Positions 1,432 through 28,174 of a stretch of 45,167 nt of DNA are shown here, piece by piece; position 1 is the stretch's first letter; every line of letters begins with the position of its first letter. Position numbers and translations under genes: made by a program. The stretch is taken from positions 1 to 45,167 of the IMG/VR virus record IMGVR_UViG_3300046507_000489. One strand, given 5' to 3'. The notes beneath the pieces were generated by a model. The model was not told the DNA's origin and did not search any database. It worked only from the letters and a program-made list of their open reading frames with translations. Origin of the DNA: a virus.

Positions 1432-1453
1432 CAATAGCTTGTCTGACTTAGGG
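1432..1453 (-). promoter_or_regulatory. Middle-type promoter motif upstream of the 1053-1403 gene
   Basis: On the minus strand the sequence reads AACCC, 13 bases, then CTATTG as -10-like element. It matches the repeated ACCC-N12/13-CTATTA motif and ends about 29 bases from the downstream ATG. Confidence 0.6.
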
Positions 1454-1458
1454 TTGCT

Positions 1459-2565
1459 TCAGGCTTCTTCGTGCACAGAGCGGGCTTTTGCGAGCACGTC
1501 GGCGCAGTCGGACTTCACACGGCTGCGGTCGACGAAGGTGGGCATATCCTTGTCGTTGTCGACGAAGGCGGTCACGCTTTCATCGAGCGAGGCACCGGAT
1601 TTCGCAGCGCCTGGTCGCCGGCCGGCTGCGGCCTTCTTGGTGGCGAGCACCGAGACGCCGAGGGCACCATTGTCAGCGAAGAACTTGCGGATCTCCGTGA
1701 CGTCGTTCGGCGTCATGTCTTTGCCCGAAAACCGCACATAGTTGCCCGTCGCGGCCAGAGCCATGTCGTCCTGGTCCAGACCGGTGACATCGACAAAGCG
1801 CGGCGCGTGGCTCGCGCTGAACTTGACCGAGCCGTCGTTTTCGACTGTCAGATAGCCGGCGCGCGAGCCGATATCGCCCCAGGTCTGATGCGTGGTCGCG
1901 CCGATCGAATAGACGCCGCCCTCGAAAGCCTTGTGATTGTGGTAGTGGCCGGCGAAGACATTCCTGAAGCCGAAGTCGGCGAGTGTCTTGGGCGACAGAC
2001 CGTGATCCGGCATGTTCGGCAGAACACCGTCGATGCCAGCGTGGATGACGAGGTCGTAGCTACCGACGTCGGCGCCCATCTGCTCACGGAGCTCATCGAT
2101 CTTCTCGAGGAGATCGCTGACCGACGAGCACCACGGCACAAATGCGAGGTGTCTCTCGTGATCACCGACGTTGTAGGTCATGAATTGCGGCTCATCGACC
2201 AGAATGAAGGTGCCTTCAGGACTGTTCGTCTCGGCGAGCGTCTTGATGGCATTGCCAAGCACAGTCGTCTCTTTTCCCGCCAGGTCGTGATTGCCTGGGA
2301 TCGCAATGATGTCCATGCCGAGATTGAGGATCGCGCGGATCGTCTCCTGGAGCGGATTGAGCACCTCCGGGTCGATCGAGCCGCGAACGTGCAGAATGTC
2401 GCCGGCGATGACCATCAGATCGACGCCGTTGGAGAGCGCTTCCTTCGCGGCGCGCAGCATTTCGTCGAGGATGATCTGAAGCCGGCCGTTGACGCCGTCG
2501 GCGTTCGTCTTGGCGAACAGGCTCCAGCGGTGAGCGTGGATGTCGGAGAGGACGATGTAGCTCAT
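1459..2565 (-). CDS. SbcD/Mre11-like (T4 gp47-like) metallophosphoesterase nuclease subunit
   Basis: A 368-residue calcineurin-like phosphoesterase. All the metal-binding motifs are visible: SDIH at 7-10, GD at 55-56, GNHD at 91-94, H175, and GHYHNH at 206-211. This arrangement is that of the Mre11/SbcD/gp47 family, the nuclease half of the Rad50-Mre11 complex that processes double-strand ends. The Rad50-like partner is the partial gene at the left edge. The start at 2565 is preferred because it has GGAG 10 bases upstream; the longer frame starts inside the operator palindrome. The leader has two operator palindromes (2586-2599, 2637-2650) and a promoter-like element between them, so expression is probably repressor-controlled. 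Confidence 0.92.
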   Translation of the reverse strand: MSYIVLSDIHAHRWSLFAKTNADGVNGRLQIILDEMLRAAKEALSNGVDLMVIAGDILHVRGSIDPEVLNPLQETIRAILNLGMDIIAIPGNHDLAGKETTVLGNAIKTLAETNSPEGTFILVDEPQFMTYNVGDHERHLAFVPWCSSVSDLLEKIDELREQMGADVGSYDLVIHAGIDGVLPNMPDHGLSPKTLADFGFRNVFAGHYHNHKAFEGGVYSIGATTHQTWGDIGSRAGYLTVENDGSVKFSASHAPRFVDVTGLDQDDMALAATGNYVRFSGKDMTPNDVTEIRKFFADNGALGVSVLATKKAAAGRRPGAAKSGASLDESVTAFVDNDKDMPTFVDRSRVKSDCADVLAKARSVHEEA

Positions 2566-2585
2566 GCGTGATAATCTCCAGTCAG

Positions 2586-2599
2586 TCAATGTTTATTGA
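2586..2599. promoter_or_regulatory. Dispersed operator palindrome (TCAATGTTTATTGA)
   Basis: Copy of the 14-bp TCAAT-N4-AYTGA palindrome, just downstream of the promoter-like element at 2608-2629 and upstream of the Mre11-like start. It would overlap the start of transcription. Confidence 0.75.
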
Positions 2600-2607
2600 T
2601 TACTCTC

Positions 2608-2629
2608 GTTATACGCATCGCAGAAAGGG
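2608..2629 (-). promoter_or_regulatory. Middle-type promoter motif upstream of the Mre11-like gene
   Basis: On the minus strand, GTCCC is followed after 13 bases by TATAAC, close to the CCC-N12/13-CTATTA motif. It lies between two operator palindromes. Confidence 0.5.
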
Positions 2630-2636
2630 ACGCAAG

Positions 2637-2650
2637 TCAATATTGACTGA
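2637..2650. promoter_or_regulatory. Dispersed operator palindrome (TCAATATTGACTGA)
   Basis: A 16-bp perfect palindrome when extended (AGTCAATATTGACT plus one pair). It sits upstream of the promoter-like element. The segment from here to the CCC element (ATTGACTTGCGTCCC, minus strand) is repeated almost exactly at 15877-15893. Confidence 0.75.
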
Positions 2651-2833
2651 CGAGCGCGTTTTAAACACATCCCTTGCAACGATAGAAGAAATGCCGTCGC
2701 GATAGTTAGATTTGATTATTTGCTGTGCAATGCAGCAAGCATAAAGGGCTATTATTTAAAGAAAAGGCAAATATTACATGTCGGATGGCGAAGAAAACAC
2801 CAACCGAGTGAACCAATTAACCGGGAGGGTGCT

Positions 2834-3205
2834 ATGAAAAGCTTGGCTATCCTGTTTGGTTCTGCGTTTGTTGCGTCTGTTTCAGTGATGAGCGTCCCTT
2901 CTCTGGCTTTGGCTGAATGCAGCGGGTGGGTAGCCTGCATGGCCGAAGGCACGTGGGCTGAAGGTGTGACAAAAGAGGGTGACAAACTCTTGAGGAGCAC
3001 CAAGAATCCGATCGGCAGACCTGTCTCACCGCAGGCTTCCCAGCAGCGGGTGGATCCGGACGATGCAAAACGAATGGCAGGCCTTGGAAATACCTGCTTC
3101 GCTGACGAAGGCTCGGTTGGCGGCGGCGACTCCTGGGGACCAATTGGACGCCGTTGCTATTTTTACGGCCCGAACGGGATAGTAGAAGGCCGAATCGGAC
3201 CGTAA
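2834..3205 (+). CDS. Small secreted protein on the opposite strand (moron-like)
   Basis: A 123-residue protein on the plus strand, amid minus-strand genes. The start is fixed by a strong GGGAGGG ribosome site 5 bases upstream. Residues 1-27 are a classical Sec signal peptide (MKSLAILFG, hydrophobic core, ending SLALA) with cleavage predicted before ECSGW. The mature protein has four cysteines (in ECSGWVAC, NTCFA and RCYFYG), suggesting two disulphides in the periplasm. It has its own terminator immediately downstream. Isolated opposite-strand genes with their own signals are often morons, for example for superinfection exclusion or lysogenic conversion. No family was recognised, so that role is only an inference. 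Confidence 0.75.
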   Translation: MKSLAILFGSAFVASVSVMSVPSLALAECSGWVACMAEGTWAEGVTKEGDKLLRSTKNPIGRPVSPQASQQRVDPDDAKRMAGLGNTCFADEGSVGGGDSWGPIGRRCYFYGPNGIVEGRIGP

Positions 3206-3220
3206 TCCTCCCGAACGAAA

Positions 3221-3253: not shown

Positions 3254-3265
3254 GTGACCTCGCGC

Positions 3266-3685: not shown

Positions 3686-3697
3686 AGTGTTCTCCTG

Positions 3698-4093: not shown

Positions 4094-4117
4094 GAAATCC
4101 CCGGCAGTTGGCGCCGG

Positions 4118-4943: not shown

Positions 4944-4971
4944 GAAGTCACTCCGCTAGTTCAATGCTATC

Positions 4972-4992
4972 TAATAGCGTGAATTTAGCGGG
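4972..4992 (-). promoter_or_regulatory. Middle-type promoter motif upstream of the ASCH gene
   Basis: Minus strand: CCC, 12 bases, CTATTA. The -10-like hexamer ends 29 bases from the ATG at 4943, in the short gap after the 5001-5237 gene. Confidence 0.65.
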
Positions 4993-5000
4993 AGTGACTG

Positions 5001-8120: not shown

Positions 8121-9089
8121 TTAGAGGTTGTCGAGGTCCGCAAGGACGTCATCGAGATCGCTGTCGTCGATGGCTTCGGCCGCAACTTCTTCCTTCGCTG
8201 CGGCCTTCGGAGCCGGAGCGGTCTTCTTCGCAGCAGCCGTCGTCTGCTTGGCAGCAGTCTTCGGTGCCTCTTCGTCCGTATCGAACGGAGGTTCGTCGTT
8301 GAGATCCTGCGACAGATCTTCCTCGACGACCGTTTCTTCCTCTTCTTCGCGAACCTGAGCAGCGCGCGAGGTCAGGGCAGCGGTCGGCGTCTTGGAGCCG
8401 ATGCGCGGCACGTTGATCTGAGCGATCTGCGCGATGGCATTGATTGCCTTCGTTTCTTCGCCCTTGAAGAACTCCTTGTTGATGTGGTCGAGCAGGTTGT
8501 GGCAGCCGGCGAGATGTTCCTTCTTGACCGGCTGGGACGTGCCCGGCGCAGCGTTGACGGAATACTCGGTGTTAAGGCCCTTGCCGGAGCGAGAGATGGA
8601 GATGTCGATGCCGTTCTTCGGATCGAGCACGTCCTGGTCTTCTTCGGCGTATTCCTGGACGAGACCCATGATCTTGCCGAAGGTCGTGGTCGTGACCTCG
8701 AGGATCTGGACTTCATCCGGGTTGGTCGAGCCCTTCGAGCGATCAAGCACGTTCAGGAGAACGGACTTCTTCGCACGCCAGCTTTCGTAGAGCTTCTTGC
8801 TGTCTTCATCGAACGCCGAGGCAATCGCCTGGTCGATGGCGGTGTCGATTTCGCAGACTTCCTGGAAGACGACGTCACGGCAGCCAACAACGGCGACCGG
8901 CTTGTTGCTCTCGAGTTCCGTCTTGATCCAGTGCACACCGAGGTCGGCCCAGAACTGGACATCGGCGTCGGGAACGAGGATGCGGTAACGGTTGGTGCCT
9001 TCCTTCGGCTTGATGCGATTGCCGCTGGAGCGGGAATACTTGTTCGCAGCCTGGGAGACGAGCTTCTGAAGAGCGGGGGAGAGTGCCAT
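8121..9089 (-). CDS. gp32-like single-stranded DNA-binding protein
   Basis: A 322-residue protein. The N-terminal region contains RYRILVPDADVQFWADLGVHWI and further strands to about residue 160, the pattern of the phage gp32-type OB-fold SSB core. It has a flexible Ala/Pro/Lys-rich segment (APKAAAKEEVAAEAI) and ends in an acidic tail, DDSDLDDVLADLDNL, as used by SSBs to recruit polymerase, helicase and recombinase. Start at 9089 with AAAGGA upstream. The 88-base leader has repeated AGCGAAT-like motifs that could serve autogenous translational control as in T4 gp32. A middle-type promoter motif lies at 9178-9198. Confidence 0.85.
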   Translation of the reverse strand: MALSPALQKLVSQAANKYSRSSGNRIKPKEGTNRYRILVPDADVQFWADLGVHWIKTELESNKPVAVVGCRDVVFQEVCEIDTAIDQAIASAFDEDSKKLYESWRAKKSVLLNVLDRSKGSTNPDEVQILEVTTTTFGKIMGLVQEYAEEDQDVLDPKNGIDISISRSGKGLNTEYSVNAAPGTSQPVKKEHLAGCHNLLDHINKEFFKGEETKAINAIAQIAQINVPRIGSKTPTAALTSRAAQVREEEEETVVEEDLSQDLNDEPPFDTDEEAPKTAAKQTTAAAKKTAPAPKAAAKEEVAAEAIDDSDLDDVLADLDNL

Positions 9090-9170: not shown

Positions 9171-9177
9171 AAAACTA

Positions 9178-9198
9178 TAATAGCGAGAGTTTGTTGGG
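9178..9198 (-). promoter_or_regulatory. Middle-type promoter motif upstream of the SSB gene
   Basis: Minus strand: ATCCC, 12 bases, CTATTA within CGCTATTATAG. One of the best matches to the repeated motif. Confidence 0.7.
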
Positions 9199-9208
9199 AT
9201 GCGCGTGG

Positions 9209-9451
9209 TTATTGCGCGACCAGTGCGGAAATCTTCGCGGCCTGGCTTGCTGCGGACTTTGCTGCTGCCGTCTTGGCGGCTGCACGGCGCGCGGCGCGCA
9301 CGGCTTCGGCGTCATGCGCTTCGGCCTCGGCACGGCTCTGGGCTTCGTGAGCCTGGAGCTTGGTGACGATCGAAGTGATCGGGCTGCAGATCGACTCCAC
9401 AGTTTCTTCGATACCGAACTGGCGCTTGATGAATGCGATGATCTTTCTCAT
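9209..9451 (-). CDS. Small alanine-rich hypothetical protein
   Basis: An 80-residue protein starting MRKIIAFIKRQFGIEETVES, with GAGGAG 5 bases upstream. The first 20 residues are basic and amphipathic; residues 33-75 are a long Ala/Glu/Arg-rich helix (AEAEAHDAEAVRAARRAAAK) likely to be a coiled coil. No catalytic residues or family were recognised. It has its own operator (9474-9487) and a weak promoter motif upstream and lies just before the SSB promoter. Confidence 0.65.
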   Translation of the reverse strand: MRKIIAFIKRQFGIEETVESICSPITSIVTKLQAHEAQSRAEAEAHDAEAVRAARRAAAKTAAAKSAASQAAKISALVAQ

Positions 9452-9487: not shown

Positions 9488-9490
9488 ACG

Positions 9491-9512
9491 TAATAGACAG
9501 GGAATCGTCGGA
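9491..9512 (-). promoter_or_regulatory. Weak middle-type promoter motif
   Basis: Minus strand: TCC, 13 bases, CTATTA. Only two of the three C residues are present. It precedes the operator at 9474-9487 and the gene at 9209-9451. Confidence 0.45.
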
Positions 9513-9524
9513 CTGCGCAGAGAA

Positions 9525-10105
9525 TTATGCGGCAATCGAACGATCGGCGGCTCGCTTCAGATACTTCTCCTTCAGGTCATCGACGTGAGCCTCGGACTCG
9601 CGCTTCTGCTGGATGGAGAGCTCGCCCTTCATCTCCTCGCGCATGATCAGACCCTGCTGGATCAGCATGTCGCGACGATGCCGGAAGGCTTCGACAGCCG
9701 TCTTGGCGACGGACTCGATCTGCTTGGCTTCGTTGAGCGCCCGGTTGACGGCGCGCACGCGCTCGTGGCGGGTCACCTGCTTCTCGACCTGGGCTTCCGT
9801 GACCTTCTCGCCACGATTGACCATGCCGTCGCGAATGACGCGGTAGACCTGCGCCTCGATGTTATCGAGGAGCATCTTGATGTTGTCGACCTGCCGGGAC
9901 GATTTCGCAGCGAGTTCGCCATAGTGGGCGAAGAGCGATGCCTGGCGCATCATCGCGTCCGACAGGTTGATCGTCGTATAGGAAAGGTCTTCCTTGAGCT
10001 TCGCCATGTCGATGAACTGGCGCACCGTGATTTTCTGTGCTTCTGTCACTGTTTCTTCCTTATGTGCTTTCTGAATAATAGCGCGTTCGCGCTTGGAATT
10101 GCTCA

Positions 10106-10106
<1 letters not shown>
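9525..10106 (-). CDS. Helical protein, possible UvsY-like recombination mediator
   Basis: A 193-residue, almost entirely helical protein. The start is GTG at 10106, overlapping the polymerase stop by one base (TAGTG) with no clear ribosome site, so translation is probably coupled. Residues 40-190 have a pattern found in UvsY-type mediators: helix, LFAHYGELAAKSS, a segment with YRVIRDGMVNRGEKVTEAQVEKQV, then a long charged helix. UvsY loads UvsX onto gp32-coated ssDNA, and both of those partners are encoded nearby. No diagnostic signature was recognised, so this is an inference from pattern and context. Another reading is a generic coiled-coil replication accessory protein. Confidence 0.75.
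10076..10097 (-). promoter_or_regulatory. Weak middle-type promoter motif inside a coding region
   Basis: Minus strand: TTCC, 13 bases, CTATTA, in the first codons of the 9525-10106 gene. It could drive a shorter product starting at an internal ATG near 10007, or be a chance match. Confidence 0.35.
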
Positions 10107-13459
<3,353 letters not shown>

Positions 13460-13460
13460 G

Positions 13461-13985
13461 TTATCTCCTCAGTGTGACTGCGCCGTCGATGACATCGACT
13501 GCGCCAATGTATGCGAGCGCCTGCATTGCCATGCGTGCGTGGCTGTCGGCTGTGCCCTTCGACCAGTTGAGCTTGGTCTCGAGCGCCATCGCCAAGACCT
13601 CGCGGCTCATCGGCTGCTTCAGCTTCAGAAGCAGATGCGAGGCGATGCGCATGAACTGCATGCCGGCGTTGTCGAAGGGATTGCGCCCTTCGCGGAAACC
13701 TTCGGTGACGCGGATCTTGGACCGCTCGATGCGCTCGACCAGCGCCTGGGTCTTCTTGGCGAGCATCATTGCCGGCGAGGGATGCGCCGATGGCTCTTCT
13801 TTTCGGTTTGGCGCTCTCTTCTTGACGCGAATGCCGAGCTTCTCGCGCAGCGCGATCAGGTTCAGTTCGTGAACCGGGCCACACTGATCCTTGAAGGTGC
13901 AGACCGAGCAGACCGGCGCGTTCTCGTCGAAGGCGAGTGCTGAGCCGAAGCAGCCAGGCGCAAATTGCGGTATCGTGTTGCTCAT
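13461..13985 (-). CDS. Hypothetical protein with a four-cysteine motif
   Basis: A 174-residue protein starting MSNTIPQFAPGCFGSALAF. Cysteines at 12, 26, 29 and 35 (C-x13-C-x2-C-x5-C) suggest a zinc or iron-sulphur site at the N-terminus. The middle is basic (RVKKRAPNRKEE), and the C-terminal 90 residues look like a winged-helix-like helical domain (MQFMRIASHLLLKLKQPMSREVLAMALE, then TADSHARMAMQALAYIGAVDVI). This could be a DNA-binding protein or a replication factor tied to the polymerase, whose gene starts directly after it. It overlaps the sigma-like gene by ATGA. No family was recognised. Confidence 0.75.
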   Translation of the reverse strand: MSNTIPQFAPGCFGSALAFDENAPVCSVCTFKDQCGPVHELNLIALREKLGIRVKKRAPNRKEEPSAHPSPAMMLAKKTQALVERIERSKIRVTEGFREGRNPFDNAGMQFMRIASHLLLKLKQPMSREVLAMALETKLNWSKGTADSHARMAMQALAYIGAVDVIDGAVTLRR

Positions 13986-14608
13986 GCCATTTTCCTCTGC
14001 ATCAGCGCGCCGAGCTTCCTGACTTCCTTCAGGATCTTCGTTCGCTCGAGGCGGTTGACGCCCATCACCTTGAATACGATCGCCGTCGTCAGGTGGCGGG
14101 GCGTGACGAAATCGACGCCGATGCTCTCGGCGTGTCTGGAGCGGCTCTCAAGCTGCAGGAGCTGGTCGAGCAAAAGGGTCGGCTGATCGTAGAGCAAGCG
14201 CAGGAACGTCGCGGCTTCCGGCGAGATGCGCTTGGAGACGTGCTCGAGGTGCGAGCGCTCCTCGTAGTCGTGGCCGATCTCCGGCTCGTCGCTGGCGATC
14301 TGGTCGTGCATCGAGCCTTCGTCCTCATCCGGACTGTCGAGCGTTTCTGTCCACTCGTCGTTGATCCGGTTGAGCAGCTTGCGGCGGAGATCCCAGCGCA
14401 CGTAGCGCTTCAAGCCTTCAATCATGTATGCCTGGAAGGGCACGTTCTGGCTCGCGTCGAACGTGTCGCGAGCCTTGCACCATGCGATCCAGAGCTCCTG
14501 CTCGACATCGTCGCGGGTGATGGAGCGAGCGCCAGCAGCGTGAAGCTGGCGCATAACGATCCACGCGATCCGCTTGATGCGCGGTGCGCTCTCGCGGTAG
14601 TCGATCAT
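13982..14608 (-). CDS. Sigma-factor-like protein (region 2 similarity)
   Basis: A 208-residue protein. Residues 10-80 read as sigma-70 family region 2: IAWIVMRQLHAAG, then TRDDVEQELWIAWCKARDTFD and VPFQAYMIEGLKRYVRWDLRR, matching the DL-QE--IAL--A---FD----VPF-TY---IRG-I-D--R pattern that binds the core beta' subunit and the -10 element. An acidic linker (DSPDEDEGSMHDQ) follows, and the C-terminal 80 residues could be a divergent region 4 (TTAIVFKVMGVNRLERTKILKEV). It could redirect host RNA polymerase to the repeated CTATTA promoters found in this window. It is ATGA-coupled to both neighbours. The region-2 match is moderate, and a DNA-binding protein without sigma activity remains possible. 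Confidence 0.72.
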   Translation of the reverse strand: MIDYRESAPRIKRIAWIVMRQLHAAGARSITRDDVEQELWIAWCKARDTFDASQNVPFQAYMIEGLKRYVRWDLRRKLLNRINDEWTETLDSPDEDEGSMHDQIASDEPEIGHDYEERSHLEHVSKRISPEAATFLRLLYDQPTLLLDQLLQLESRSRHAESIGVDFVTPRHLTTAIVFKVMGVNRLERTKILKEVRKLGALMQRKMA

Positions 14609-15804
14609 CCGAAGTGCCTTTGCATCATGTCTTCGATCGCCTTCTGGTCGACACGCGAGCAGCGATTGACGAAGGCTTGCTTCATGCCGAGCTTCGGGTT
14701 GTCGCCGTAGACGAGCGACAGTTCGGCCGCGTTGATCAGCTCGCGCGGCGACAGCGTCATTGAGATCGCGCCGTCGACGAATGCCTCGCGGACGGTGTTT
14801 GCGACCTTCACGAACTTGTCAGCATCCGGCTTGGTCAGACCGACGCGCGAGCGAAGCACAAGCGCTTCCTGGGCTGCCGGCATATACTTGACCTCTTCGG
14901 TGATGCCGAAGCGCGAGTAGGATGCTGCGTTCTGGATCATCGTGCCTTGATAGAGGCCCGTCTCGTCGCCGACGCCATTGGTGTTGCCGGTCGCAACGAA
15001 GCGGAAGTCAGGATGCGGATGAATGACGCGCTGATCGATCGGAGCGTCCTTGATGACGAGCGGCTCGCCTTCGAGCACCGGCTGATAGAGCGCGATGACG
15101 GAGGGCATGGCGAAGTCGTATTCGTCGGCGCAGTAGATCATGCCGTATTTCATGGCGAGCGCGAGCGGCCCGAGCTGGAACTCGGTGTAGCTGGCGCCCT
15201 GGTCGTTGGTCTTGACGACATACTGACCGAGAATGTGCGCCTCTTCGGTGTTGCCGGTGTGCTGGACGCGCATGAACGGGCGACCGGTGCGCGCGGCGCA
15301 CTGCTGAAGCACCGTCGTCTTGCCTGTGCCGTGCAGACCCCAGAGATAGATGTTCTTGCCGAGCTCGAAGCCGACGCAGACCGTCTTGATGAGGTCGATG
15401 TTGAAGACGTAGTCCGGATCGACCCTGCGAACGTAGGCGTCGGCCTCGGGGTGATGCTCGGTGAGCACGCGGATCGAGATCGGATTGCCGGTCGAGCTCT
15501 TGATCGGCTGCGGGCCGAGGTCGAAGACCTCATTCATCAGGCGCTCGGCGAAAGCGAAGGGCTGCGCCGGCGCGAAGCTCTGCATCCGCTGCTCGCGTTC
15601 GAGGGCGACCTTCTTCTTCTCCTGCTGCTGAATGGCAATGCGCTTGCCATATTCCGACAGGATCGGCTCGCCGGGATATTCCGACTTGTAGCGATCGATC
15701 GTCCAGTCAGGATGGTTGTCGCGCAGATAGATGCGAATGGAGTGGCACTGCCCGCCGTCGATCTTGCAAGTGATCGTGTTGGCAGCATCGGCTGTCTCGG
15801 TCAT
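14605..15804 (-). CDS. CobS-like AAA+ ATPase (MoxR-type)
   Basis: A 399-residue AAA+ protein closely following bacterial CobS: Walker A GLHGTGKT at 156-163, Walker B YCADEYDFA near 224-232, PHPDFRFVATGNTNG, GDETGLYQGT and a sensor/lid region with SPRELINAAE. The first 50 residues form a separate small module (GGQCHSIRIYLRDNHPDW). In bacteria CobS and CobT drive cobalt insertion in vitamin B12 synthesis, but without CobN this cannot occur. In phages the pair is better read as a MoxR/VWA chaperone or remodelling machine. Start at 15804 has GGAG 6 bases upstream; the longer frame begins inside an operator. It heads the operon running through the sigma-like protein to the polymerase. Confidence 0.9.
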   Translation of the reverse strand: MTETADAANTITCKIDGGQCHSIRIYLRDNHPDWTIDRYKSEYPGEPILSEYGKRIAIQQQEKKKVALEREQRMQSFAPAQPFAFAERLMNEVFDLGPQPIKSSTGNPISIRVLTEHHPEADAYVRRVDPDYVFNIDLIKTVCVGFELGKNIYLWGLHGTGKTTVLQQCAARTGRPFMRVQHTGNTEEAHILGQYVVKTNDQGASYTEFQLGPLALAMKYGMIYCADEYDFAMPSVIALYQPVLEGEPLVIKDAPIDQRVIHPHPDFRFVATGNTNGVGDETGLYQGTMIQNAASYSRFGITEEVKYMPAAQEALVLRSRVGLTKPDADKFVKVANTVREAFVDGAISMTLSPRELINAAELSLVYGDNPKLGMKQAFVNRCSRVDQKAIEDMMQRHFG

Positions 15805-15851
15805 CAAGGTCTCCGTTTGTTGCTCGCGATTTGTTTCGCTGTTTTGATAAG

Positions 15852-15865
15852 TCAATATTTACTGA
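15852..15865. promoter_or_regulatory. Dispersed operator palindrome (TCAATATTTACTGA)
   Basis: Copy of the palindrome in the leader of the CobS-like gene; the second of a pair with 15886-15899. Confidence 0.75.
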
Positions 15866-15885
15866 ATGTGCGATAGGGACGCAAG

Positions 15886-15899
15886 TCAATATTGATTGA
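15886..15899. promoter_or_regulatory. Dispersed operator palindrome (TCAATATTGATTGA)
   Basis: Copy of the palindrome next to the hairpin at the end of the CobT-like gene. Together with the adjacent sequence it repeats the 2627-2650 arrangement. Confidence 0.75.
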
Positions 15900-15901
15900 C
15901 C

Positions 15902-15937
15902 GCGCAAGATCCCAACTACTTCGTCAGGATCTTGCGC
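15902..15937 (-). terminator. Strong hairpin across the stop codon of the CobT-like gene
   Basis: GCGCAAGATCC (15902-15912) is perfectly complementary to GGATCTTGCGC (15927-15937), an 11-bp stem whose loop contains the stop codon. No U run follows on the minus strand, so it may be an mRNA-stabilising or attenuating structure rather than a complete terminator. Confidence 0.5.
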
Positions 15938-18450
15938 AGCTCGGTCATCACGGCGCCAGGCAGTTTGGCGATGTCATCGAGGACGATGTGGTTGTCGTAG
16001 AACCGGCTGACGGCGTCGTCCATGATGCCGATGCCGACGAGGTCGATGCCGGCCGCCATCAGCTTGGTCGTCATCATGCGGAGGTGTTCGGCGTCGCGTT
16101 GGGCGCCAGCGGGGTGACCGTCGGACAGCACCATGATCACCTTGCGCTTCTCCTTGCGCTGGACCAGGCGCATGGCTGCGTATTCGAGGGACTCGCCGTC
16201 GATGTTGCCGCCCATGTTCGGCTGCTTTGCGCGGAAGTGGGCGAAGCGCTTCTTGACGTCCGAGTTGATCCGCTCGTTGAAGTCCTTGAAGATCGGCATG
16301 TAGATCGGCATCACTCGGCAGAACTGGATGCCCGTCTTGCGCTGCTCCTCGTCGTAGTCGTTGATCAGCTTTTCCATCGCTTCGCGATTGAACCGCTCGT
16401 TGCTCGTCCACATGCCACCGGTCGTGAAGCCCAGGCATTCATGCGGAATGTTGACGCGCTCCAGCACGGAGGAAAGCGCGTAGCCGGCGGTTGTCGCCAG
16501 CGCTGCCTTTTCACCTTTCATCGAGCCGGAGTTGTCGATCAGCAGCGAGACGGCGGTGTCCTTTGCCGTGATCTCGTGGCGCTGCGAGAAGATGCGGGCG
16601 TCGCCGGCGATCAGTCGGTGCAGACCGGGACCGTTGAGCTTGCCGGAGCGCTGACCGCCGACGTTGAAGACGCGCGACTGCGCTGCCATCATGCGCTCGA
16701 TGTCCTTCTGCATGACACCGGTCATGGAGCGGACTTCGTCCTCGAGCTTGGTGACGTAGCTGCCGGCGTTCCAGTCCTTCGGGGTCGGATACGGCTCGAT
16801 CATGTCGTATTCGCGGGTATAGACCGTGTAGTCAGCCTCGCGGCAGGCTTCGATCGCTTCCTTCTGGATCATCACGACGATCGACGCGGAGAGATCCTTG
16901 TCGGCGACGTCCTCGTCCGTGAGCTCGTCGAAAGGATTCGGCCCGTCGTAGCCGACGCCGGCAACCTCGTTCTTGTTCTCGTCGTCCTCGGAAGCAGCCT
17001 CAGTGTCGTCGTCGGAGTCGGTCTCGACAGCTAGATTGTTGTTCGAGCCTTCCGCTTCGTCGCCGTCTTCACCTTCGTCGTCGTCTTCATCGCCGCCAGC
17101 GCCTGGCGATGAGCCATCCTCGCTCTGTGCATCACGATCAGCCTCGTCATCATCACCGGAATCGCCGGCATCACTTTCACCGTCATCAGCGGCTGATTGG
17201 TCGTCATCGCCGCCATCTTCACCCGCCTCATCTTTCTCGTCCTGATCTCCGGCCTCAGAATTGTCAGCCGACTTAGGTTCGTCACCGTCGGTCTGACCAT
17301 CATCGCCATCTTCATCATCGCCAGCGCCGGCAGATGCATCATCGGCATCGTCGTCTTCGCCATTTGACCTTTCTTCGTCCGACGCATCATCACTGGAACC
17401 AGAGCTTTGATCTGCCTGGTCTTCATCGTCGCCGGACTCTGCGTCACCTTTGCCTTTGCCTTCGTCGGCTTCGTCCTCGGGATCATCGCTCTTTCCATCT
17501 TTGCCGGAGTCACCTTCGTCCTCGCTCTCGCCAGGCTCGCCTTCGTCGGACGGCTCTTCACCGTCAGCGCCTTCGCCTTCGTCGTCGTCTTGCGGGTCGC
17601 TGTCCTCGTCGTCTTCACCGCCGGACGCGTTCTCGCTGTCTTCCTTGTGCTCGCGCTCGCCCTTGCCTTCACCGTCTTCAGAGGACTGCTCCTCGTCGGA
17701 GTGGTCTTCTTCGGACTCCTGGTCAGACGTGTCCTGGTCGCCGGACTGCGAATCCTGGTCGTCCTGCTCTTCGTCCTGGGGTTCAGGCTGGGGAGGGGCG
17801 GGCGGTGGTGGCGGGTAGAGGATAGCCTCGAGCTCGACCGCGGCGCGGTAGGTCTCCTCCGTGCTCGACAGATGGGGCACGCCGTCCTTGAACGACTGAG
17901 GCAGGCGCTTCATCAGCGCCTCAACAAGTGGATGATCCCAGTATTTGTTGTCGTCGAGGAAGTCCTGAAACTCTCTCTGACCGGAGAGCGCGCGCAGAAC
18001 GCCGACGAGGAGATAGCCGAACTGTTCTTCCTGGCTCTTGGCAGCAAGCACAGCCGGCTGCGTGATCTTCTCGGCGAACCAGCTCCGGAGCTGCGCAATG
18101 TTCTTGCGCGAACCGGGGAACATCTCGCCCATCCGGCGTTCGACATAGGTGTCTTCGAGCAGGTTGTGGAGATTATGCAGACGCTTGGACTTGTCCTTCG
18201 CCTTGAACAGGAAGTCGGTGCACAGGACGTGGCCGACTTCGTGATCGATGAAGCCCTGGATCGCGAAGATGAACTCCGGCTCAGCGTTGTCCGGAATGCA
18301 TGGAATGTTGATGTGGTAGGGCAGGCCAGTAACGGGGTGAGGCGCAACGTAGGCTCGAGTGCCGATCTGAGTGACTTTCAGACCTTTGCCGGCGATCATC
18401 GGGATCAACTTGGTGATCGCTTGGCGGAGGATTACAATTTCTTTGTTCAT
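15916..18450 (-). CDS. CobT-like VWA domain protein with an HExxH motif
   Basis: An 844-residue protein in three parts. Residues 1-205 resemble the N-terminal part of CobT but contain DHEVGH at 69-74 and LLEDTYVERRMGEM at 97-110, a HExxH...E arrangement like a zinc metallopeptidase. Residues about 210-520 are an extreme Asp/Glu/Ser/Gly-rich linker. The C-terminal 220 residues are a von Willebrand A domain with a MIDAS motif, LLIDNSGSMKG, and a later VLSDGHP segment. It should act with the CobS-like ATPase encoded next, as CobS-CobT or MoxR-VWA pairs do. The acidic linker is much longer than in typical bacterial CobT. It has its own operator and promoter motif upstream (18470-18509). Confidence 0.88.
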   Translation of the reverse strand: MNKEIVILRQAITKLIPMIAGKGLKVTQIGTRAYVAPHPVTGLPYHINIPCIPDNAEPEFIFAIQGFIDHEVGHVLCTDFLFKAKDKSKRLHNLHNLLEDTYVERRMGEMFPGSRKNIAQLRSWFAEKITQPAVLAAKSQEEQFGYLLVGVLRALSGQREFQDFLDDNKYWDHPLVEALMKRLPQSFKDGVPHLSSTEETYRAAVELEAILYPPPPPAPPQPEPQDEEQDDQDSQSGDQDTSDQESEEDHSDEEQSSEDGEGKGEREHKEDSENASGGEDDEDSDPQDDDEGEGADGEEPSDEGEPGESEDEGDSGKDGKSDDPEDEADEGKGKGDAESGDDEDQADQSSGSSDDASDEERSNGEDDDADDASAGAGDDEDGDDGQTDGDEPKSADNSEAGDQDEKDEAGEDGGDDDQSAADDGESDAGDSGDDDEADRDAQSEDGSSPGAGGDEDDDEGEDGDEAEGSNNNLAVETDSDDDTEAASEDDENKNEVAGVGYDGPNPFDELTDEDVADKDLSASIVVMIQKEAIEACREADYTVYTREYDMIEPYPTPKDWNAGSYVTKLEDEVRSMTGVMQKDIERMMAAQSRVFNVGGQRSGKLNGPGLHRLIAGDARIFSQRHEITAKDTAVSLLIDNSGSMKGEKAALATTAGYALSSVLERVNIPHECLGFTTGGMWTSNERFNREAMEKLINDYDEEQRKTGIQFCRVMPIYMPIFKDFNERINSDVKKRFAHFRAKQPNMGGNIDGESLEYAAMRLVQRKEKRKVIMVLSDGHPAGAQRDAEHLRMMTTKLMAAGIDLVGIGIMDDAVSRFYDNHIVLDDIAKLPGAVMTELRKILTK

Positions 18451-18483: not shown

Positions 18484-18487
18484 ACAG

Positions 18488-18509
18488 TTATCGCATTAAA
18501 AAACTTGGG
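18488..18509 (-). promoter_or_regulatory. Middle-type promoter motif upstream of the CobT-like gene
   Basis: Minus strand: AACCC, 13 bases, CGATAA(C). The upstream box is perfect; the -10-like part is degenerate. It lies within the 3' end of the small membrane protein gene. Confidence 0.55.
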
Positions 18510-18714
18510 TTGCGAACGGCAAGAGAAGGATTGCTGCGCCGATCACAGGGATAATGATGTGGACGTTTCCATATTCAGGATGGTCGCCGCTAAAGATGGT
18601 CATACTGCCAATTTCCTTGCGGGCCTTATTCACCAGCCTATTTGCCTGCTCATAGGCATCTTCGAAGTCGAGTTCTTTGACGGCTTCGGACTGGTTCATG
18701 CGAAGAGTGTTCAT
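18496..18714 (-). CDS. Small protein with one C-terminal transmembrane segment
   Basis: A 72-residue protein starting MNTLRMNQSEAVKELDFEDA. Residues 10-37 are a charged helix (EDAYEQANRLVNKARKEI) and residues 51-70 form one hydrophobic segment (VHIIIPVIGAAILLLPFA), giving a tail-anchored topology with the helix in the cytoplasm. The ribosome site is weak (AAGGG about 12 bases upstream), and the second Met at residue 6 may be the real start. A palindromic operator (18744-18757) lies upstream, so the gene seems to form its own repressible unit between the regulator terminator and the CobT-like gene. No family was recognised. Confidence 0.65.
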   Translation of the reverse strand: MNTLRMNQSEAVKELDFEDAYEQANRLVNKARKEIGSMTIFSGDHPEYGNVHIIIPVIGAAILLLPFATQVF

Positions 18715-18826: not shown

Positions 18827-19234
18827 TTACGAAAACGCCTTAGTGATCGCCGAACGACGTTGATCGTTGAGACCCGGATCAGAAGCTCCGGAGATCTCGC
18901 GGATCAACGTGATGATGGCTTTTTCGTTGGCGCTCATGAACATGGCGTCAAAGAGCTGAGTGGTCTCCTTGTCGTCGTTGGTGAAGTAGAGCTTAATCGC
19001 CATGCGCATCAGATGCGCCGGGTCAGTCTCCAGTGCCTTCGCCAAACCGATGACCCGATCGAGCGGCAATTTGGCGTCGCCGGTCTTGATCATGGAAATG
19101 ATGCCTGGGGTCTTGAAACCCGCCTGTTGAGCGATCAATCTTTGGCTCTTGGTAGCCGCCAACTCATCGATGCGCTTGGAGAGGAACTTCGCCAGCTCGC
19201 TGTCAGCGTATGGACGTTCAATCATCTCGCTCAT
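18827..19234 (-). CDS. XRE-type helix-turn-helix regulator, candidate phage repressor
   Basis: A 135-residue protein. Residues 14-65 contain an HTH of the XRE/Cro-CI class: LSKRIDELAATKSQRLIAQQAGF, KTPGIISMIKTGDAKLPLDRV and IGLAKALETDP, with recognition helix around residues 46-54. The C-terminal 60 residues are helical and may mediate dimerisation. The leader contains an operator palindrome (19370-19383) overlapping the -35 of a probable promoter, which suggests autoregulation, plus a middle-type promoter motif (19308-19328). A strong terminator follows the gene. It is the best candidate for the protein that binds the dispersed TCAAT-N4-AYTGA sites. Similar proteins occur in rhizobial chromosomes, where they are also unassigned. 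Confidence 0.85.
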   Translation of the reverse strand: MSEMIERPYADSELAKFLSKRIDELAATKSQRLIAQQAGFKTPGIISMIKTGDAKLPLDRVIGLAKALETDPAHLMRMAIKLYFTNDDKETTQLFDAMFMSANEKAIITLIREISGASDPGLNDQRRSAITKAFS

Positions 19235-19307
19235 GTGTATATTAACCCCTTGTCCCTTCGAGTTTCTTTAGCGTTTATTCTGACAGCGTGTTTTTGTTCT
19301 ATGTCAG

Positions 19308-19328
19308 TAATAGCGCTCACTTCTTGGG
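19308..19328 (-). promoter_or_regulatory. Middle-type promoter motif upstream of the HTH regulator
   Basis: Minus strand: AACCC, 12 bases, CTATTA. It lies about 74 bases before the regulator start codon and would add a second, later promoter to that gene. Confidence 0.65.
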
Positions 19329-19342
19329 TTGATCGCGATTTT

Positions 19343-21248: not shown

Positions 21249-21274
21249 AAAAAAGGGTGGTCCGAAGACCACCC
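21249..21274 (-). terminator. Intrinsic terminator between convergent repC and ligase genes
   Basis: GGGTGGTC (21255-21262) pairs with GACCACCC (21267-21274), an 8-bp stem with a CGAA/TTCG loop; on the minus strand a T6 run (21254-21249) follows. It ends minus-strand transcripts coming from the ligase gene or from the promoter motif at 21317-21337. Confidence 0.9.
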
Positions 21275-21310
21275 AGTTGACATGAACGGGAGACTATCGA
21301 TCACTCGATA
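21249..21310 (-). ncRNA. Candidate small RNA: middle-type promoter followed only by a terminator
   Basis: A strong copy of the promoter motif (21317-21337) lies between the ligase stop codon and the terminator at 21249-21274, with no gene after it. Transcription starting near 21309 would give an RNA of about 60 nt ending in the GGGTGGTC/GACCACCC hairpin with a T6 tail. It would be antisense to the 3' trailer of the repC mRNA. The start point is inferred from the -10 position. Confidence 0.5.
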
Positions 21311-21316
21311 ACACTA

Positions 21317-21337
21317 TAATAGCGCTCAAGAATCGGG
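21317..21337 (-). promoter_or_regulatory. Middle-type promoter motif with no downstream gene
   Basis: Minus strand: AATCCC, 12 bases, CTATTA in GCGCTATTATAG, nearly identical to the SSB gene promoter motif (9178-9198). Confidence 0.65.
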
Positions 21338-21350
21338 ATTGCGCAGAAAG

Positions 21351-23980: not shown

Positions 23981-24009
23981 GCTCTTTCTCGCTTTTGCTT
24001 ATGTCTCTG

Positions 24010-24031
24010 ATATAGCGCGATGTTGATTGGG
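24010..24031 (-). promoter_or_regulatory. Middle-type promoter motif upstream of the WGR-like gene
   Basis: Minus strand: AACCC, 13 bases, CTATAT. The hexamer equals the rhizobial sigma-70 -10 consensus. The hexamer ends about 30 bases before the ATG. Confidence 0.7.
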
Positions 24032-24038
24032 TTGTAAG

Positions 24039-24052
24039 TCAATGTTGACTGA
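24039..24052. promoter_or_regulatory. Dispersed operator palindrome (TCAATGTTGACTGA)
   Basis: Copy of the palindrome immediately upstream of the promoter motif at 24010-24031, next to the primase stop codon. Confidence 0.75.
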
Positions 24053-25154: not shown

Positions 25155-26530
25155 CAAACTCTCCCGAGAACCTTGGTGAGGAACTTGAGCTTGTCGCGCT
25201 CCTGACGAATGCGGATCGAGAAGCCGTCTTCAGAGTTTCGCGAGGCAGCCCAGAACAGACGCGCCTCGCCCGACTGCTTTTCAGCGTCGGTGGCGTTGAT
25301 GCCGATCACGACGTCGGCAATACGGATCTTGTTGAAGTCCTCAGACACGTCGGTCATCTTGGCGGTATGAGCACTGGCGCCGGCGCGGTTGGTCTGCGTG
25401 GCAGAGATCAGCGCCAGGTCGTGCTCGTGGGCAATGGCGCGGATATCGACGTAGATGGACTTGGAGTTCTCGATAATGTTGTCGGTGCGATACTCGGCCG
25501 CCATGATGTCAGCGTAGTCGACCGCCAGCAGATCGAGAATGATGCCTTCTGACCGCCAGCGCTCGAGGAGCCGGTAGATCGCCGATGGCTTCAGGGTGCC
25601 GGTCGCATAGTCGCGGAGCAGCAGCGTGCCGGCCTTTGCCTCGGCCGCCTTGATCCTGTTGCGCACCGTCTGCGGATCGTCCTTCAGCAAACGCATAGCG
25701 GTGTCTGCGAGGTTAGCGTCGAGACGATCGGCGATGATCGCCTTGCTCACTTCGAGCGACAGATAGGCGGTATTGTAGCCGAGCAGCGAGGCGTTCTTGG
25801 TGAACTCGCCAAGCGACAGTGACTTACCGGACTTTGCTGGACCCATCATCAGCGACAGTTCCTGCCTGCCCCATCCGTCGTGGTGGAGATGGCAATCGAT
25901 CTCGCTGTAGCCGGTCGAGATGCCGCGCTTGACGATCTTGCCGGCCTTCCAGTCCTCGCGGACCTGGGTTCGATTGTCGATCTCGGTCCAATAGTTGTAG
26001 TCGCCGTCATCAACCTCGGCGCCGACGAGCAGTGCTGCCTTCTGAAGCTTCTCGATCCCCTTGAAGTCGCCACGCTGCAGGAGCTCGACGCTCTTGATGA
26101 GCGCGTTCTCCATCGCCTGGTGCCTCGCGAAGTCCGTCACCTTCTCCAGCACGTAGCTCGAGTTGGAGAGGTCGGTGCGCATCGCATCTTTGATGGCCTC
26201 CTTGAGGTCGGGCATCATGTCGTCGCGGATGCGCTTCTTGGTGCGCTCGTCCTTGATGATCTGCGTGAGGATGCGCAGATCGGGAACAGCCCTGTGGACC
26301 TTGATGTGCTCCTTCACGAGCCGGACCAGCACTCCGCTGGCGCTGCTTGCCAGATAATCCGGGTCGATCAGATCCTTTGCGCGGTTGGCGAACTTGCTGT
26401 CGCGCAGGAACAGCGCCGTGACCTTCTTCTGGAAGGCCTCGTCAAAATCCCACTGTGCCACTTCAGCCGTTTGCTCTTCCGCGCCCTGCACTTCTTCAGT
26501 CTCTTCGGTTTGTGCTTCTGCGAGGGACAT
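25154..26530 (-). CDS. DnaB-type replicative helicase
   Basis: A 458-residue RecA-fold (superfamily 4) helicase. The first 30 residues are acidic and probably disordered. A helical N-domain (30-170) is followed by GISTGYSEIDCHL, Walker A GPAKSGKS at 230-237, YLSLEVSK (H1a-like), Walker B ILDLLAVDYADIM and H3-type ALISATQTNRAG. It should unwind the fork as a hexamer together with the primase encoded just downstream. Start at 26530 with AAAGGA 7 bases upstream. An operator palindrome (26552-26565) lies 21 bases upstream of the start codon. Confidence 0.94.
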   Translation of the reverse strand: MSLAEAQTEETEEVQGAEEQTAEVAQWDFDEAFQKKVTALFLRDSKFANRAKDLIDPDYLASSASGVLVRLVKEHIKVHRAVPDLRILTQIIKDERTKKRIRDDMMPDLKEAIKDAMRTDLSNSSYVLEKVTDFARHQAMENALIKSVELLQRGDFKGIEKLQKAALLVGAEVDDGDYNYWTEIDNRTQVREDWKAGKIVKRGISTGYSEIDCHLHHDGWGRQELSLMMGPAKSGKSLSLGEFTKNASLLGYNTAYLSLEVSKAIIADRLDANLADTAMRLLKDDPQTVRNRIKAAEAKAGTLLLRDYATGTLKPSAIYRLLERWRSEGIILDLLAVDYADIMAAEYRTDNIIENSKSIYVDIRAIAHEHDLALISATQTNRAGASAHTAKMTDVSEDFNKIRIADVVIGINATDAEKQSGEARLFWAASRNSEDGFSIRIRQERDKLKFLTKVLGRV

Positions 26531-26551
26531 ACAGCTTCCTTTCTCAATCAG

Positions 26552-26565
26552 TCAATATTTATTGA
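26552..26565. promoter_or_regulatory. Dispersed operator palindrome (TCAATATTTATTGA)
   Basis: Copy of the palindrome in the leader of the helicase gene, preceded on the minus strand by CTAAAG, a possible weak -10. Confidence 0.75.
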
Positions 26566-26649
26566 ACGCTTTAGGCTTAGAAAAAGCGCTCGTATCGACC
26601 TCTCATGAGCATCGCTCACATGAGAAGATATCGAATACAGCGCGGGTTG

Positions 26650-27360
26650 CTACTGGAGATACGTATAGACCCGCTGGACCTGTTCAGGCTCGTAGCGGGC
26701 TTCGACCTTGCTCAAGGGCAGCACGTCGTCGTTGACGAACTGTGCCAGATACATCGGCGGATTGGCACGCAATCCGGCCTGCTTGAAGAGCCAGTCGTGA
26801 TAGTCGTCCTGATGGGCGATCGAGCGATAGTTCTGGATCATGTAGCAGGGATCTTCGGAGAGATAGAGCTTGGTGGTCTGCATCTCCTCCCACTGTGCCT
26901 GCGTGTGCTCCACATCGAAGCTTCCGTAGAGGTGATGCGGCCGGGGCAGATGCTTCTGGTTCCAAAACCGGAGGCGCCGGCCCATCGTCGTGTGAATGTA
27001 TTCGCGGTATGGCATGCCGAGCGCATCGGCGACCTGGCGTCCGCGGTAGCAGGCGGCAAAGAGACCCTTGGCCTTGGCGTCGTTGTTGGCAAGACCGCTG
27101 AAGATCGACTCCACGCTGGGTGGTCTCACGAAGCTCGCTGTCTTGCGATCAACCTGGGCCGCGTAAAAAGCACGATAGACTTCCGTGAAGGCCTGAATAT
27201 AGAGCCTGGTCGCCTGGACCGGCGTCATCATCCGGTAGTCGAACCACTTGGAACGAAAAAGCTCCGGCTCAAGGGCCAGGAGCTTCTTCGAGGTATACAT
27301 GAGGGCGACGATGTCGTCCTCAAGCGGATTGTGTCGTTCAGTTTCGTTCAGCACCTGCAT
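26650..27360 (-). CDS. Hypothetical protein, 236 residues
   Basis: Starts MQVLNETERHNPLEDDI; the start at 27360 lies 23 bases inside the end of phoH and directly below a promoter motif (27408-27428). The longer frame would be antisense-shadowed by phoH and is not supported. The protein is soluble and rich in aromatic residues (RLRFWNQKHLPRPHHLYG, EDPCYMIQNYRSIAHQDDYHDW), with several conserved-looking histidines and acidic residues that might bind metal. No family was recognised. It lies between phoH and the helicase. Confidence 0.75.
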   Translation of the reverse strand: MQVLNETERHNPLEDDIVALMYTSKKLLALEPELFRSKWFDYRMMTPVQATRLYIQAFTEVYRAFYAAQVDRKTASFVRPPSVESIFSGLANNDAKAKGLFAACYRGRQVADALGMPYREYIHTTMGRRLRFWNQKHLPRPHHLYGSFDVEHTQAQWEEMQTTKLYLSEDPCYMIQNYRSIAHQDDYHDWLFKQAGLRANPPMYLAQFVNDDVLPLSKVEARYEPEQVQRVYTYLQ

Positions 27361-28174
27361 TGATGAATCTTTCGAGCCCCGCTCTGTCGCTTTCGTTCGT
27401 CTCATCATAATAGCGATCAGAAATCGGCGTTTCGTAAGCCTCGACAATTTTCTGCACGAGCCCATGACGGACGATGTCGCTATTCCGGAAGGAAACGGTA
27501 GCGATTTCATCCAGATGCTCGGTTCTCTTCATGGCATCCATCAGGCCCGATTTGATACCATTGTCGATCTGACGGGGATCACCGTTGATGATGAACTTGC
27601 CCCCTTCCCCGAAGCGCGTCAGCAGCATCTTGAACTCGGTCACGGTGGCATTTTGCATTTCGTCGGCAATAAGCCAGCCGTTCTTCAGGGTAGCGCCACG
27701 CATGAAGGCGAGCGGGCGCGCGTCGATCTTCTTGTTCTTCACCAGGTATTCGTAATAGCCGCGACCCAATGCTTCGATGAATGCCTCCTCGAGCGGAAGC
27801 AGGTAGGGCGCATACTTCTCCTCGAGCTCACCCGGAAGAAAGCCGAAGCCTCGCTCGACCTCCACCGCCGGCCTGGTGACGTAGATCTTCTCGATCTGGC
27901 GGTTCTTCAGGGCTTCGGCTGCGCGTTGCACGGCGAACCAGGTCTTGCCCGTCCCAGCAGGGCCAATACCAAACACGACATCGGCCTGTCGAATGGCTGC
28001 ATCGTAGGCGCGTTGACCAGGCGTCAGAGCCTCGACGAGCACCTGGCGCGCCGGTCTCGGCACCTCGTGATGGTTCGCTTCGAGGGCTGCCATGATCAGA
28101 TTTTGATGGGGATTTTCGGGGTGGCGCTTTGCCTTACGTTCTTGACGATTGGCGGCCTTGCGGGACTGGGACAT
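27338..28174 (-). CDS. PhoH-like ATPase
   Basis: A 278-residue protein. Residues 1-40 are basic, followed by TPGQRAYDAAIRQADVVFGI, Walker A GPAGTGKT at 71-78, KIYVTRPAVEVERGFGFLPGELEEK, then Walker B LIADEMQNAT and GDPRQID, all diagnostic of PhoH (SF1-helicase-like ATPase, often with a role in RNA metabolism). PhoH genes are frequent in phages, where their function is unknown. The start at 28174 has GGAG 6 bases upstream; the longer frame begins in the operator region. An operator (28232-28245) lies about 58 bases upstream. TTGATT within it and TAAACT 18 bases on could be the promoter. Confidence 0.92.
   Translation of the reverse strand: MSQSRKAANRQERKAKRHPENPHQNLIMAALEANHHEVPRPARQVLVEALTPGQRAYDAAIRQADVVFGIGPAGTGKTWFAVQRAAEALKNRQIEKIYVTRPAVEVERGFGFLPGELEEKYAPYLLPLEEAFIEALGRGYYEYLVKNKKIDARPLAFMRGATLKNGWLIADEMQNATVTEFKMLLTRFGEGGKFIINGDPRQIDNGIKSGLMDAMKRTEHLDEIATVSFRNSDIVRHGLVQKIVEAYETPISDRYYDETNESDRAGLERFINAGAERN
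27408..27428 (-). promoter_or_regulatory. Middle-type promoter motif inside phoH, upstream of the 26650-27360 gene
   Basis: Minus strand: GCC, 12 bases, CTATTA in TCGCTATTATG. It lies about 48 bases before the ATG at 27360. Confidence 0.55.

What the first reader, a model, noticed from the sequence alone, without database searches (positions are those of the whole stretch)
1432..27428. A phage-specific two-part promoter: ACCC-N12/13-CTATTA
Upstream of minus-strand genes a CCC box (often AACCC) is followed after 12 or 13 bases by CTATTA or a close variant: 1432, 4972, 9178, 18488, 19308, 21317, 24010, 27408 and, less well, 2608, 9491 and 10076. Most lie 29-90 bases from a start codon. Other TAATAG occurrences inside genes that I checked lack the CCC box at that distance. 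The -10 part resembles the rhizobial sigma-70 -10 (CTATAT), but the other box sits near -30 rather than -35. This is the geometry of T4 MotA-dependent middle promoters, with a different sequence, so a phage activator or sigma factor probably reads the CCC box.
Basis: partly seen in the sequence, partly recalled or inferred. Interest (0 to 1): 0.88.

Follow-up and report, generated by a model that had tools for sequence, protein, structure and literature searches.

The report
Promoter class of a phage sigma factor
A family of bacteriophages of rhizobia and related bacteria carries its own two-part 'start here' DNA signal in front of its replication and metabolism genes but not its particle genes, and the signal is most likely read by an RNA-polymerase specificity (sigma) factor that the same phages encode.

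Summary
The window is part of a ~115-kb RepC phage-plasmid-like siphophage related to RHEph10. The element recurs as (c)GCAnYCC-N11-YGCTATAA (window clade: GCAACCC-N10..12-CGCTATT). A model trained only on two distant relatives finds 7 strong sites on the window's coding strand (0.34 expected, maximum 3 in 200 shuffles) and none on the other strand. Sites occur in 218 of 685 leaders outside the virion module but 3 of 154 inside it. The rest of one lysogen's genome has no exact match. The syntenic Pseudomonas phage nickie, which lacks the sigma gene, lacks the motif. In a motif-first scan of viral contigs, the only four contigs rich in sites all encode the sigma. Between two clades infecting the same host genus the -10 letter changes with the phage sigma clade. 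I conclude that the phage sigma (13982-14608) most likely reads both boxes. The 8-N11-8 spacing equals that of sigma-28 (FliA), not T4 MotA. Binding and transcription starts are untested. No earlier description was found in the papers held.

The parts
1429..1458 (-). promoter AGCAACCCT-N10-AGCTATTGTAA, upstream of gene 1053-1403
   Evidence: orthologous leaders in N1_10, Y2_11, Pqam (17-19 bits) and RHEph10, G006 (11)
2606..2634 (-). weak promoter TGCGTCCCT-N9-GCGTATAACGA, upstream of metallophosphoesterase
   Evidence: weak score; good promoters in the same leader of Pqam, LM21, Shin, G003
4969..4998 (-). promoter GTCACTCCC-N10-CGCTATTAGAT, upstream of ASCH-domain gene
9175..9203 (-). promoter CGCATCCCA-N9-CGCTATTATAG, upstream of ssDNA-binding protein gene 8121-9089
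   Evidence: present in the SSB leader of nearly all sigma-bearing relatives, absent in nickie
9488..9517 (-). promoter CGCAGTCCG-N10-GTCTATTACGT, upstream of 9209-9451
10073..10103 (-). promoter AGCAATTCC-N11-CGCTATTATTC, upstream of 9525-10049
   Evidence: rank 9 with independent model; counterparts in RHEph10, N1_10, Y2_11, V1VFA, LM21
18485..18514 (-). promoter CGCAACCCA-N10-TGCGATAACTG, upstream of cobT-like gene
   Evidence: rank 1 with two independent models; conserved in clade A
19305..19333 (-). promoter ATCAACCCA-N9-CGCTATTACTG, upstream of HTH protein 18827-19234
   Evidence: found in the same leader of all 14 sigma-bearing relatives compared
21314..21343 (-). promoter CGCAATCCC-N10-CGCTATTATAG, followed ~40 nt on by an intrinsic terminator; possible short RNA
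21255..21274 (-). terminator hairpin GGGTGGTC-TTCG-GACCACCC TTTTTT
   Evidence: similar hairpins at the same place in relatives
24007..24036 (-). promoter TACAACCCA-N10-CGCTATATCAG, upstream of WGR-domain gene; operator 24037-24050 abuts it
27405..27434 (-). promoter CGAAACGCC-N10-CGCTATTATGA inside the PhoH gene, upstream of 26650-27360
   Evidence: same place conserved in most relatives although inside coding sequence
13982..14608 (-). phage sigma factor (208 aa), proposed reader of the promoters
   Evidence: Pfam Sigma70_r2 in 18 of 18 family members; AF2 model and Foldseek hits to sigma factors
18827..19234 (-). HTH_3-like protein; candidate reader of the 14-bp operators, rival candidate activator
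   Evidence: Pfam HTH_3 just below cut-off; in all 14 sigma-bearing genomes compared, absent from nickie
24037..24050 (-). 14-bp operator-like palindrome AGTCAACATTGACT abutting the promoter
   Evidence: 14 such sites in window, 0.3 expected
2635..2648 (-). 14-bp operator-like palindrome AGTCAATATTGACT abutting the promoter

Best explanation
The element is the promoter of the phage's own sigma factor. The 208-aa protein of 13982-14608 (sigma region 2, a linker and a sigma-4-like C-terminal domain, no room for region 3) would join host core RNA polymerase, read YGCTATAA/CTATT with region 2 and GCAnYCC with its C-terminal HTH, and so start transcription of the replication, recombination, nucleotide-metabolism and accessory genes, but not of the virion genes. 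Several sites are flanked by a 14-bp palindrome, probably the operator of a phage repressor that silences them in the plasmid (lysogenic) state. Shown: the motif, its orientation, spacing, conservation, gene-class restriction, and its co-occurrence with the sigma gene. Inferred: that the sigma protein contacts the boxes, that transcription starts a few bases downstream, and the timing.
For: (1) Independent-model enrichment on the coding strand only and conservation in orthologous leaders of up to 14 relatives: typical scores 10-22 bits, while coding-sequence null windows have 99% quantiles of 8-11. (2) Every complete genome with the sigma has the motif; the syntenic nickie, with cobT-cobS-dnaE but no sigma, has 1 leader site and scores <=3.8 in all shared leaders but one (cobS, 7.2). 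(3) Motif-first scan of IMG/VR: 18 contigs hit; the four with 5-23 sites all encode the sigma, the 14 with 1-3 sites do not. (4) In Ancylobacter rudongensis all 4 exact matches lie on the 114-kb phage contig, none in the other ~4.4 Mb. (5) The 5th base of CTATx is A in 42/46 sites of V1VFA-S/X66 but 11/52 of RHEph10/N1_10/Y2_11, all Rhizobium phages, so specificity follows the phage and not host sigma-70; the sigma segment after region 2.2 (HINRxxEK) is replaced in the same clade. (6) 8-N11-8 spacing equals sigma-28. (7) Pfam and Foldseek place the protein among sigma factors.
Against: No binding or transcription data. Pfam finds no region 4; the C-terminal fold hits are mostly sigma-4 domains but with E>2. 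Co-occurrence cannot single out the sigma: other proteins, including the HTH_3-like protein, are also in all motif-bearing genomes and absent from nickie. nickie infects a gammaproteobacterium, so host and sigma are confounded there. Most relatives were collected by way of the sigma; only the IMG/VR motif scan was free of that. The -10 difference rests on one split between two clades, and sites within a clade are not independent.
Confidence: 0.78

Rival explanations
1. MotA-like activation: host sigma-70 reads the TATA-like box as an (extended) -10 and a phage activator, for example the HTH_3-like protein or another conserved small protein, binds GCAnYCC near -30 in place of the -35.
For: The box is centred near -30; YGCTATAA can be read as TGn-TATAA (extended -10); rhizobial sigma-70 uses a CTATAT-like -10 (own knowledge). 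The HTH_3-like protein co-occurs with the motif.
Against: Box to -10 distance is 13-14, not 12+-1; no preferred T at -7 (8 of 46 in V1VFA-S/X66), although MotA promoters need an excellent sigma-70 -10 (PMC2988021); the -10 itself differs between phage clades of one host genus; the HTH_3-like protein is better matched to the symmetric 14-bp operators.
Confidence: 0.15
2. An ordinary promoter of a host alternative sigma factor that the phage exploits.
For: A two-part sigma-type promoter in a bacterial virus.
Against: In a lysogen genome all exact matches and 11 of 21 matches with up to one mismatch lie on the phage contig; the rest of the genome is not above the reversed-pattern control.
Confidence: 0.04
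3. Not a promoter but another strand-oriented leader element (e.g. a processing or regulatory RNA element).
For: No transcription starts are mapped.
Against: Two boxes at fixed spacing, a TATA-like second box, typically 30-70 nt from start codons, strict strand bias, and a conserved copy inside the PhoH gene at promoter distance from the next gene.
Confidence: 0.03

Closest known systems
phiEco32/7-11 type phage sigma factors and their promoters (PMC4331800)
   Same: A small phage-encoded sigma with a dedicated promoter set, in phages that use host RNA polymerase
   Different: Their promoter is one box (tAATGTAtA) and serves middle and late (structural) genes; here there are two boxes and virion genes are excluded
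E. coli sigma-28 (FliA) promoters TAAAGTTT-N11-GCCGATAA (PMC2859248)
   Same: Same 8-N11-8 layout; the -10 is an octamer ending at about -8; the window cobT promoter is TGCGATAA
   Different: -35 sequence unrelated; the phage sigma has no room for region 3 and matches the FliA/WhiG model only weakly
T4 middle promoters, MotA/AsiA (PMC2988021)
   Same: Phage box near -30 plus a TATA-like box, before replication-type genes
   Different: Spacing 12+-1, host sigma-70 -10 with T at -7, needs activator and co-activator
SPO1 gp28 middle promoters (own knowledge)
   Same: Phage sigma for middle genes with two boxes
   Different: Different sequences, spacing and host; not compared by computation here

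Membership tests
Dedicated promoters of a phage-encoded sigma factor | Phage encodes a sigma-70-family protein | tested here: met
   Pfam PF04542 in 18/18 members; Foldseek top hits sigma factors
Dedicated promoters of a phage-encoded sigma factor | Repeated motif upstream of phage genes, absent from host genes | tested here: met
   one host genome examined
Dedicated promoters of a phage-encoded sigma factor | Motif occurs with the sigma gene and not without it | tested here: met
   only one full-length sigma-less relative (nickie) examined
Dedicated promoters of a phage-encoded sigma factor | Core polymerase plus this sigma starts at the motif | not testable with these tools
   needs in-vitro transcription
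Sigma-28 (FliA/WhiG, group 3) | 8-N11-8 promoter layout | tested here: met
Sigma-28 (FliA/WhiG, group 3) | Regions 2, 3 and 4, match to the FliA model above its cut-off | tested here: not met
   208 aa, only region 2 recognised; 16 bits against a cut-off of 189.6
T4 MotA-type middle promoter | Box 12+-1 nt from a sigma-70 -10 with T at -7 | tested here: not met
   13-14 nt; T at -7 in 8/46 sites of V1VFA-S/X66
T4 MotA-type middle promoter | MotA and AsiA homologues in the phage | not tested
   no dedicated profile search for MotA or AsiA was run; none appeared among the ten window proteins scanned
ECF (group 4) sigma factors | Regions 2 and 4 only | tested here: inconclusive
   two helical parts with a linker; C-terminal domain resembles sigma-4 with non-significant E-values; TIGR02937 below cut-off

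The most novel reading that the evidence does not exclude
A two-domain phage sigma without region 3 reads a sigma-28-spaced, octamer -10 promoter, and many such promoters are overlaid with operators of a dispersed repressor, so that one sigma and one repressor together set the lytic or plasmid state of a widespread family of alphaproteobacterial phage-plasmids, with the boxes diverging in step with the sigma.
Probability: 0.3. Interest if true: 0.72.

Novelty: new member of a known kind. Interest (0 to 1): 0.58.

Why it matters
It gives a sequence-level, testable transcription map for a widespread and little-studied family of phage-plasmids of nitrogen-fixing and plant-associated bacteria, assigns a probable target set to an orphan sigma family, and supplies several natural sigma/promoter pairs (GCAACCC..CTATT, GCAnTCC..CTATAA, a Methylobacterium variant) for studying how sigma specificity evolves or for building orthogonal promoters.

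Tried and rejected
De novo EM without masking locked onto the palindromic operators in clade A; masked EM solved this. Single-genome EM in clade A is not better than shuffles by information content, so I relied on models trained on other genomes. I first suspected that 27408 was a chance codon run in the PhoH gene; orthologous positions showed it is conserved. The PDB sequence search recognises mainly region 2. Folding the C-terminus alone to show region 4 gave suggestive but not significant hits. E. coli-type sigma-70 promoters: 0 found against 2.3 by chance in 17.5-24.5 kb. The paper on B1VFA/V1VFA-S (PMC12509600, read whole) and that on LM21 (PMC5537653, no mention of promoter or sigma) do not describe this promoter; PMC10783043 ran a motif search on alphaproteobacterial phages, and the passages found there do not report it (its supplements were not read).

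Full report
WHAT WAS CHECKED. The eleven reported sites were read out and all carry the described sequence or a variant of it. The window is a fragment of a siphophage with 75-78% nucleotide identity over parts to Rhizobium phages RHEph10, RHph_N1_10 and RHph_Y2_11. The related phages B1VFA and V1VFA-S are described as phage-plasmid-like, with parA, parB and repC (PMC12509600), and pLM21S1 of Sinorhizobium sp. LM21 is a related phage-plasmid (PMC5537653). Nearly all window genes, and all the sites, are on the minus strand.

THE MOTIF. Genes were predicted and leaders collected from the window, from 14 complete or near-complete relatives with the sigma gene, from smaller fragments and from nickie. 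Dyad counting without seeds found CCC/CCG-N12..13-CTATT in window plus RHEph10 (5-6 leaders, shuffle maxima 4-5), led by GCA-N17-CTATT (8 leaders), and CCC-N13-CTATA in 12 of 65 G003/G005 leaders. Expectation-maximisation gave GCAxTCC-N10..11-CGCTATAA for V1VFA-S/X66, GCAxCCC..CGCTATA for G003/G005 and GCAaCCC-N10..12-CGCTATT for the window clade. Base frequencies from 287 sites in five groups: box G, A, C, C mostly at 55-100%; -10 part G, C, T, A, T at about 73-100%; median 36-43 nt to the start codon.

NOT CHANCE. To avoid circularity the window was scanned with the model trained only on G003/G005. Seven minus-strand sites reach 13 bits; 200 shuffled windows give a mean of 0.34 and a maximum of 3; the plus strand gives none. 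Leader by leader, the element is conserved at the same genes in up to 14 relatives whose spacers have otherwise diverged: for the SSB, HTH, WGR and ASCH leaders and the gene after PhoH most relatives score 10-22 bits, whereas 200-nt windows from coding sequence have 99% quantiles of 8-11 bits. The site at 27408 lies inside the PhoH gene but has counterparts in V1VFA-S, LM21, Ancylobacter, G003, MAMS5 and others at 40-70 nt from the next start.

WHICH GENES. In 14 complete or near-complete genomes sites occur from dnaB through replication, recombination, nucleotide metabolism and accessory genes, and are nearly absent from terminase to the end of the tail genes: 3 of 154 leaders against 218 of 685 (Fisher p = 1e-18; genomes are related, so this overstates the evidence). 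It is therefore an early or middle class, not a late one; the timing itself is inferred.

WHO READS IT. The 208-aa protein 13982-14608 has Pfam Sigma70_r2 in all 18 aligned members. The AlphaFold2 model (pLDDT 80.8) shows region 2 with a long helix, a linker and a helical C-terminus ending in a putative HTH. The listed Foldseek hits in the PDB are nearly all sigma factors, and most named viral hits are too, best viral E 7e-6; the C-terminal domain alone matches mainly sigma region 4 but without significance. Four lines link motif and sigma. First, the Pseudomonas phage nickie has the same cobT-cobS-hypothetical-dnaE order but no sigma gene anywhere, and no motif. Second, starting from the motif alone, IMG/VR gave 18 contigs; the four with 5-23 sites all carry the sigma and the fourteen with one to three do not. 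Third, in the Ancylobacter genome that carries such a phage, exact matches are confined to the phage contig, so no host sigma uses this promoter widely. Fourth, V1VFA-S/X66 and RHEph10/N1_10/Y2_11 infect the same host genus, yet the base after CTAT is A in 42 of 46 sites of the first group and 11 of 52 of the second, scored with a model blind to that position; the segment following region 2.2 of the sigma (HINRxxEK) is replaced in the second clade. If host sigma-70 read the -10, no such difference would be expected. These points favour the phage sigma over an activator, but none is a binding experiment, and other proteins co-occur equally well, the HTH_3-like protein among them.

GEOMETRY. GCAnYCC ends 13-14 nt before the TATA part. 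T4 MotA boxes lie 12+-1 nt from a sigma-70 -10 (PMC2988021). Sigma-28 promoters are TAAAGTTT-N11-GCCGATAA, 14 nt to GATAA (PMC2859248), the same as here, and the window's cobT promoter even has TGCGATAA. So the short distance that suggested MotA does not require an activator. The protein is nevertheless not a FliA member: it is too short for region 3 and scores far below the FliA cut-off.

SECOND LAYER. A 14-bp palindrome A(G/A/T)T(C/A)A-N4-T(G/T)A(C/T/A)T occurs 14 times in the window (0.3 expected) and up to 48 times per relative, mostly in leaders including those of virion genes, and is absent from nickie. At 2634 and 24036 it abuts the promoter box, and at 9488 and 18485 it lies just after the -10. 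It looks like the operator set of a phage repressor, reminiscent of the stoperators of cluster A mycobacteriophages (own knowledge), and would let the plasmid state silence these promoters. This is inference.

NOVELTY. No paper found in the library held describes this promoter. Phage sigmas with dedicated promoters are a known kind (phiEco32, 7-11, T4 gp55, SPO1), so this is a new member, with an unusual sigma-28-like layout and gene-class restriction.

Noticed in passing
window 44293, 36418, 32278, 28230, 26550, 24037, 18468, 15884, 15850, 9472, 2635, 2584 (lowest base of each 14-bp site): Dispersed 14-bp palindrome, 14 copies in the window and 8-48 in most relatives, in leaders of nearly all modules; half-sites differ by clade and Ancylobacter has another form. 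Looks like the stoperator-type operator set of a phage-plasmid repressor.
   Followed up: partly
window 21250-21343 (-): A strong promoter of this class between the ligase and repC genes is followed about 40 nt on by a terminator and no gene: a possible ~50-60-nt RNA. The layout recurs in Pqam and Shin and, with a weaker promoter, in G006, RHEph10, N1_10 and Y2_11.
   Followed up: partly
window 10106-18450: Gene order cobT-cobS-sigma-hypothetical-dnaE; nickie has the same order without the sigma, so the sigma was gained or lost exactly between cobS and the hypothetical gene.
   Followed up: yes
window 15805-15900, leader of the cobS-sigma operon: This leader has a GCATCCC box with a borderline promoter in RHEph10, N1_10 and Y2_11 (10.5 bits), degenerate in the window (5.7 bits): possible self-activation of the sigma.
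   Followed up: partly
window 37899-37931: 33-bp exact match to minor tail protein genes of Streptomyces phages inside the large gene 37322-42205; unexplained.
   Followed up: no
Methylobacterium phage-plasmids NZ_CP006993 and NZ_CP090351, and viral contig G009: Their -30 box drifts to GAAnCCC/AAAnCCC with about the same spacing, another natural variant of the promoter.
   Followed up: partly
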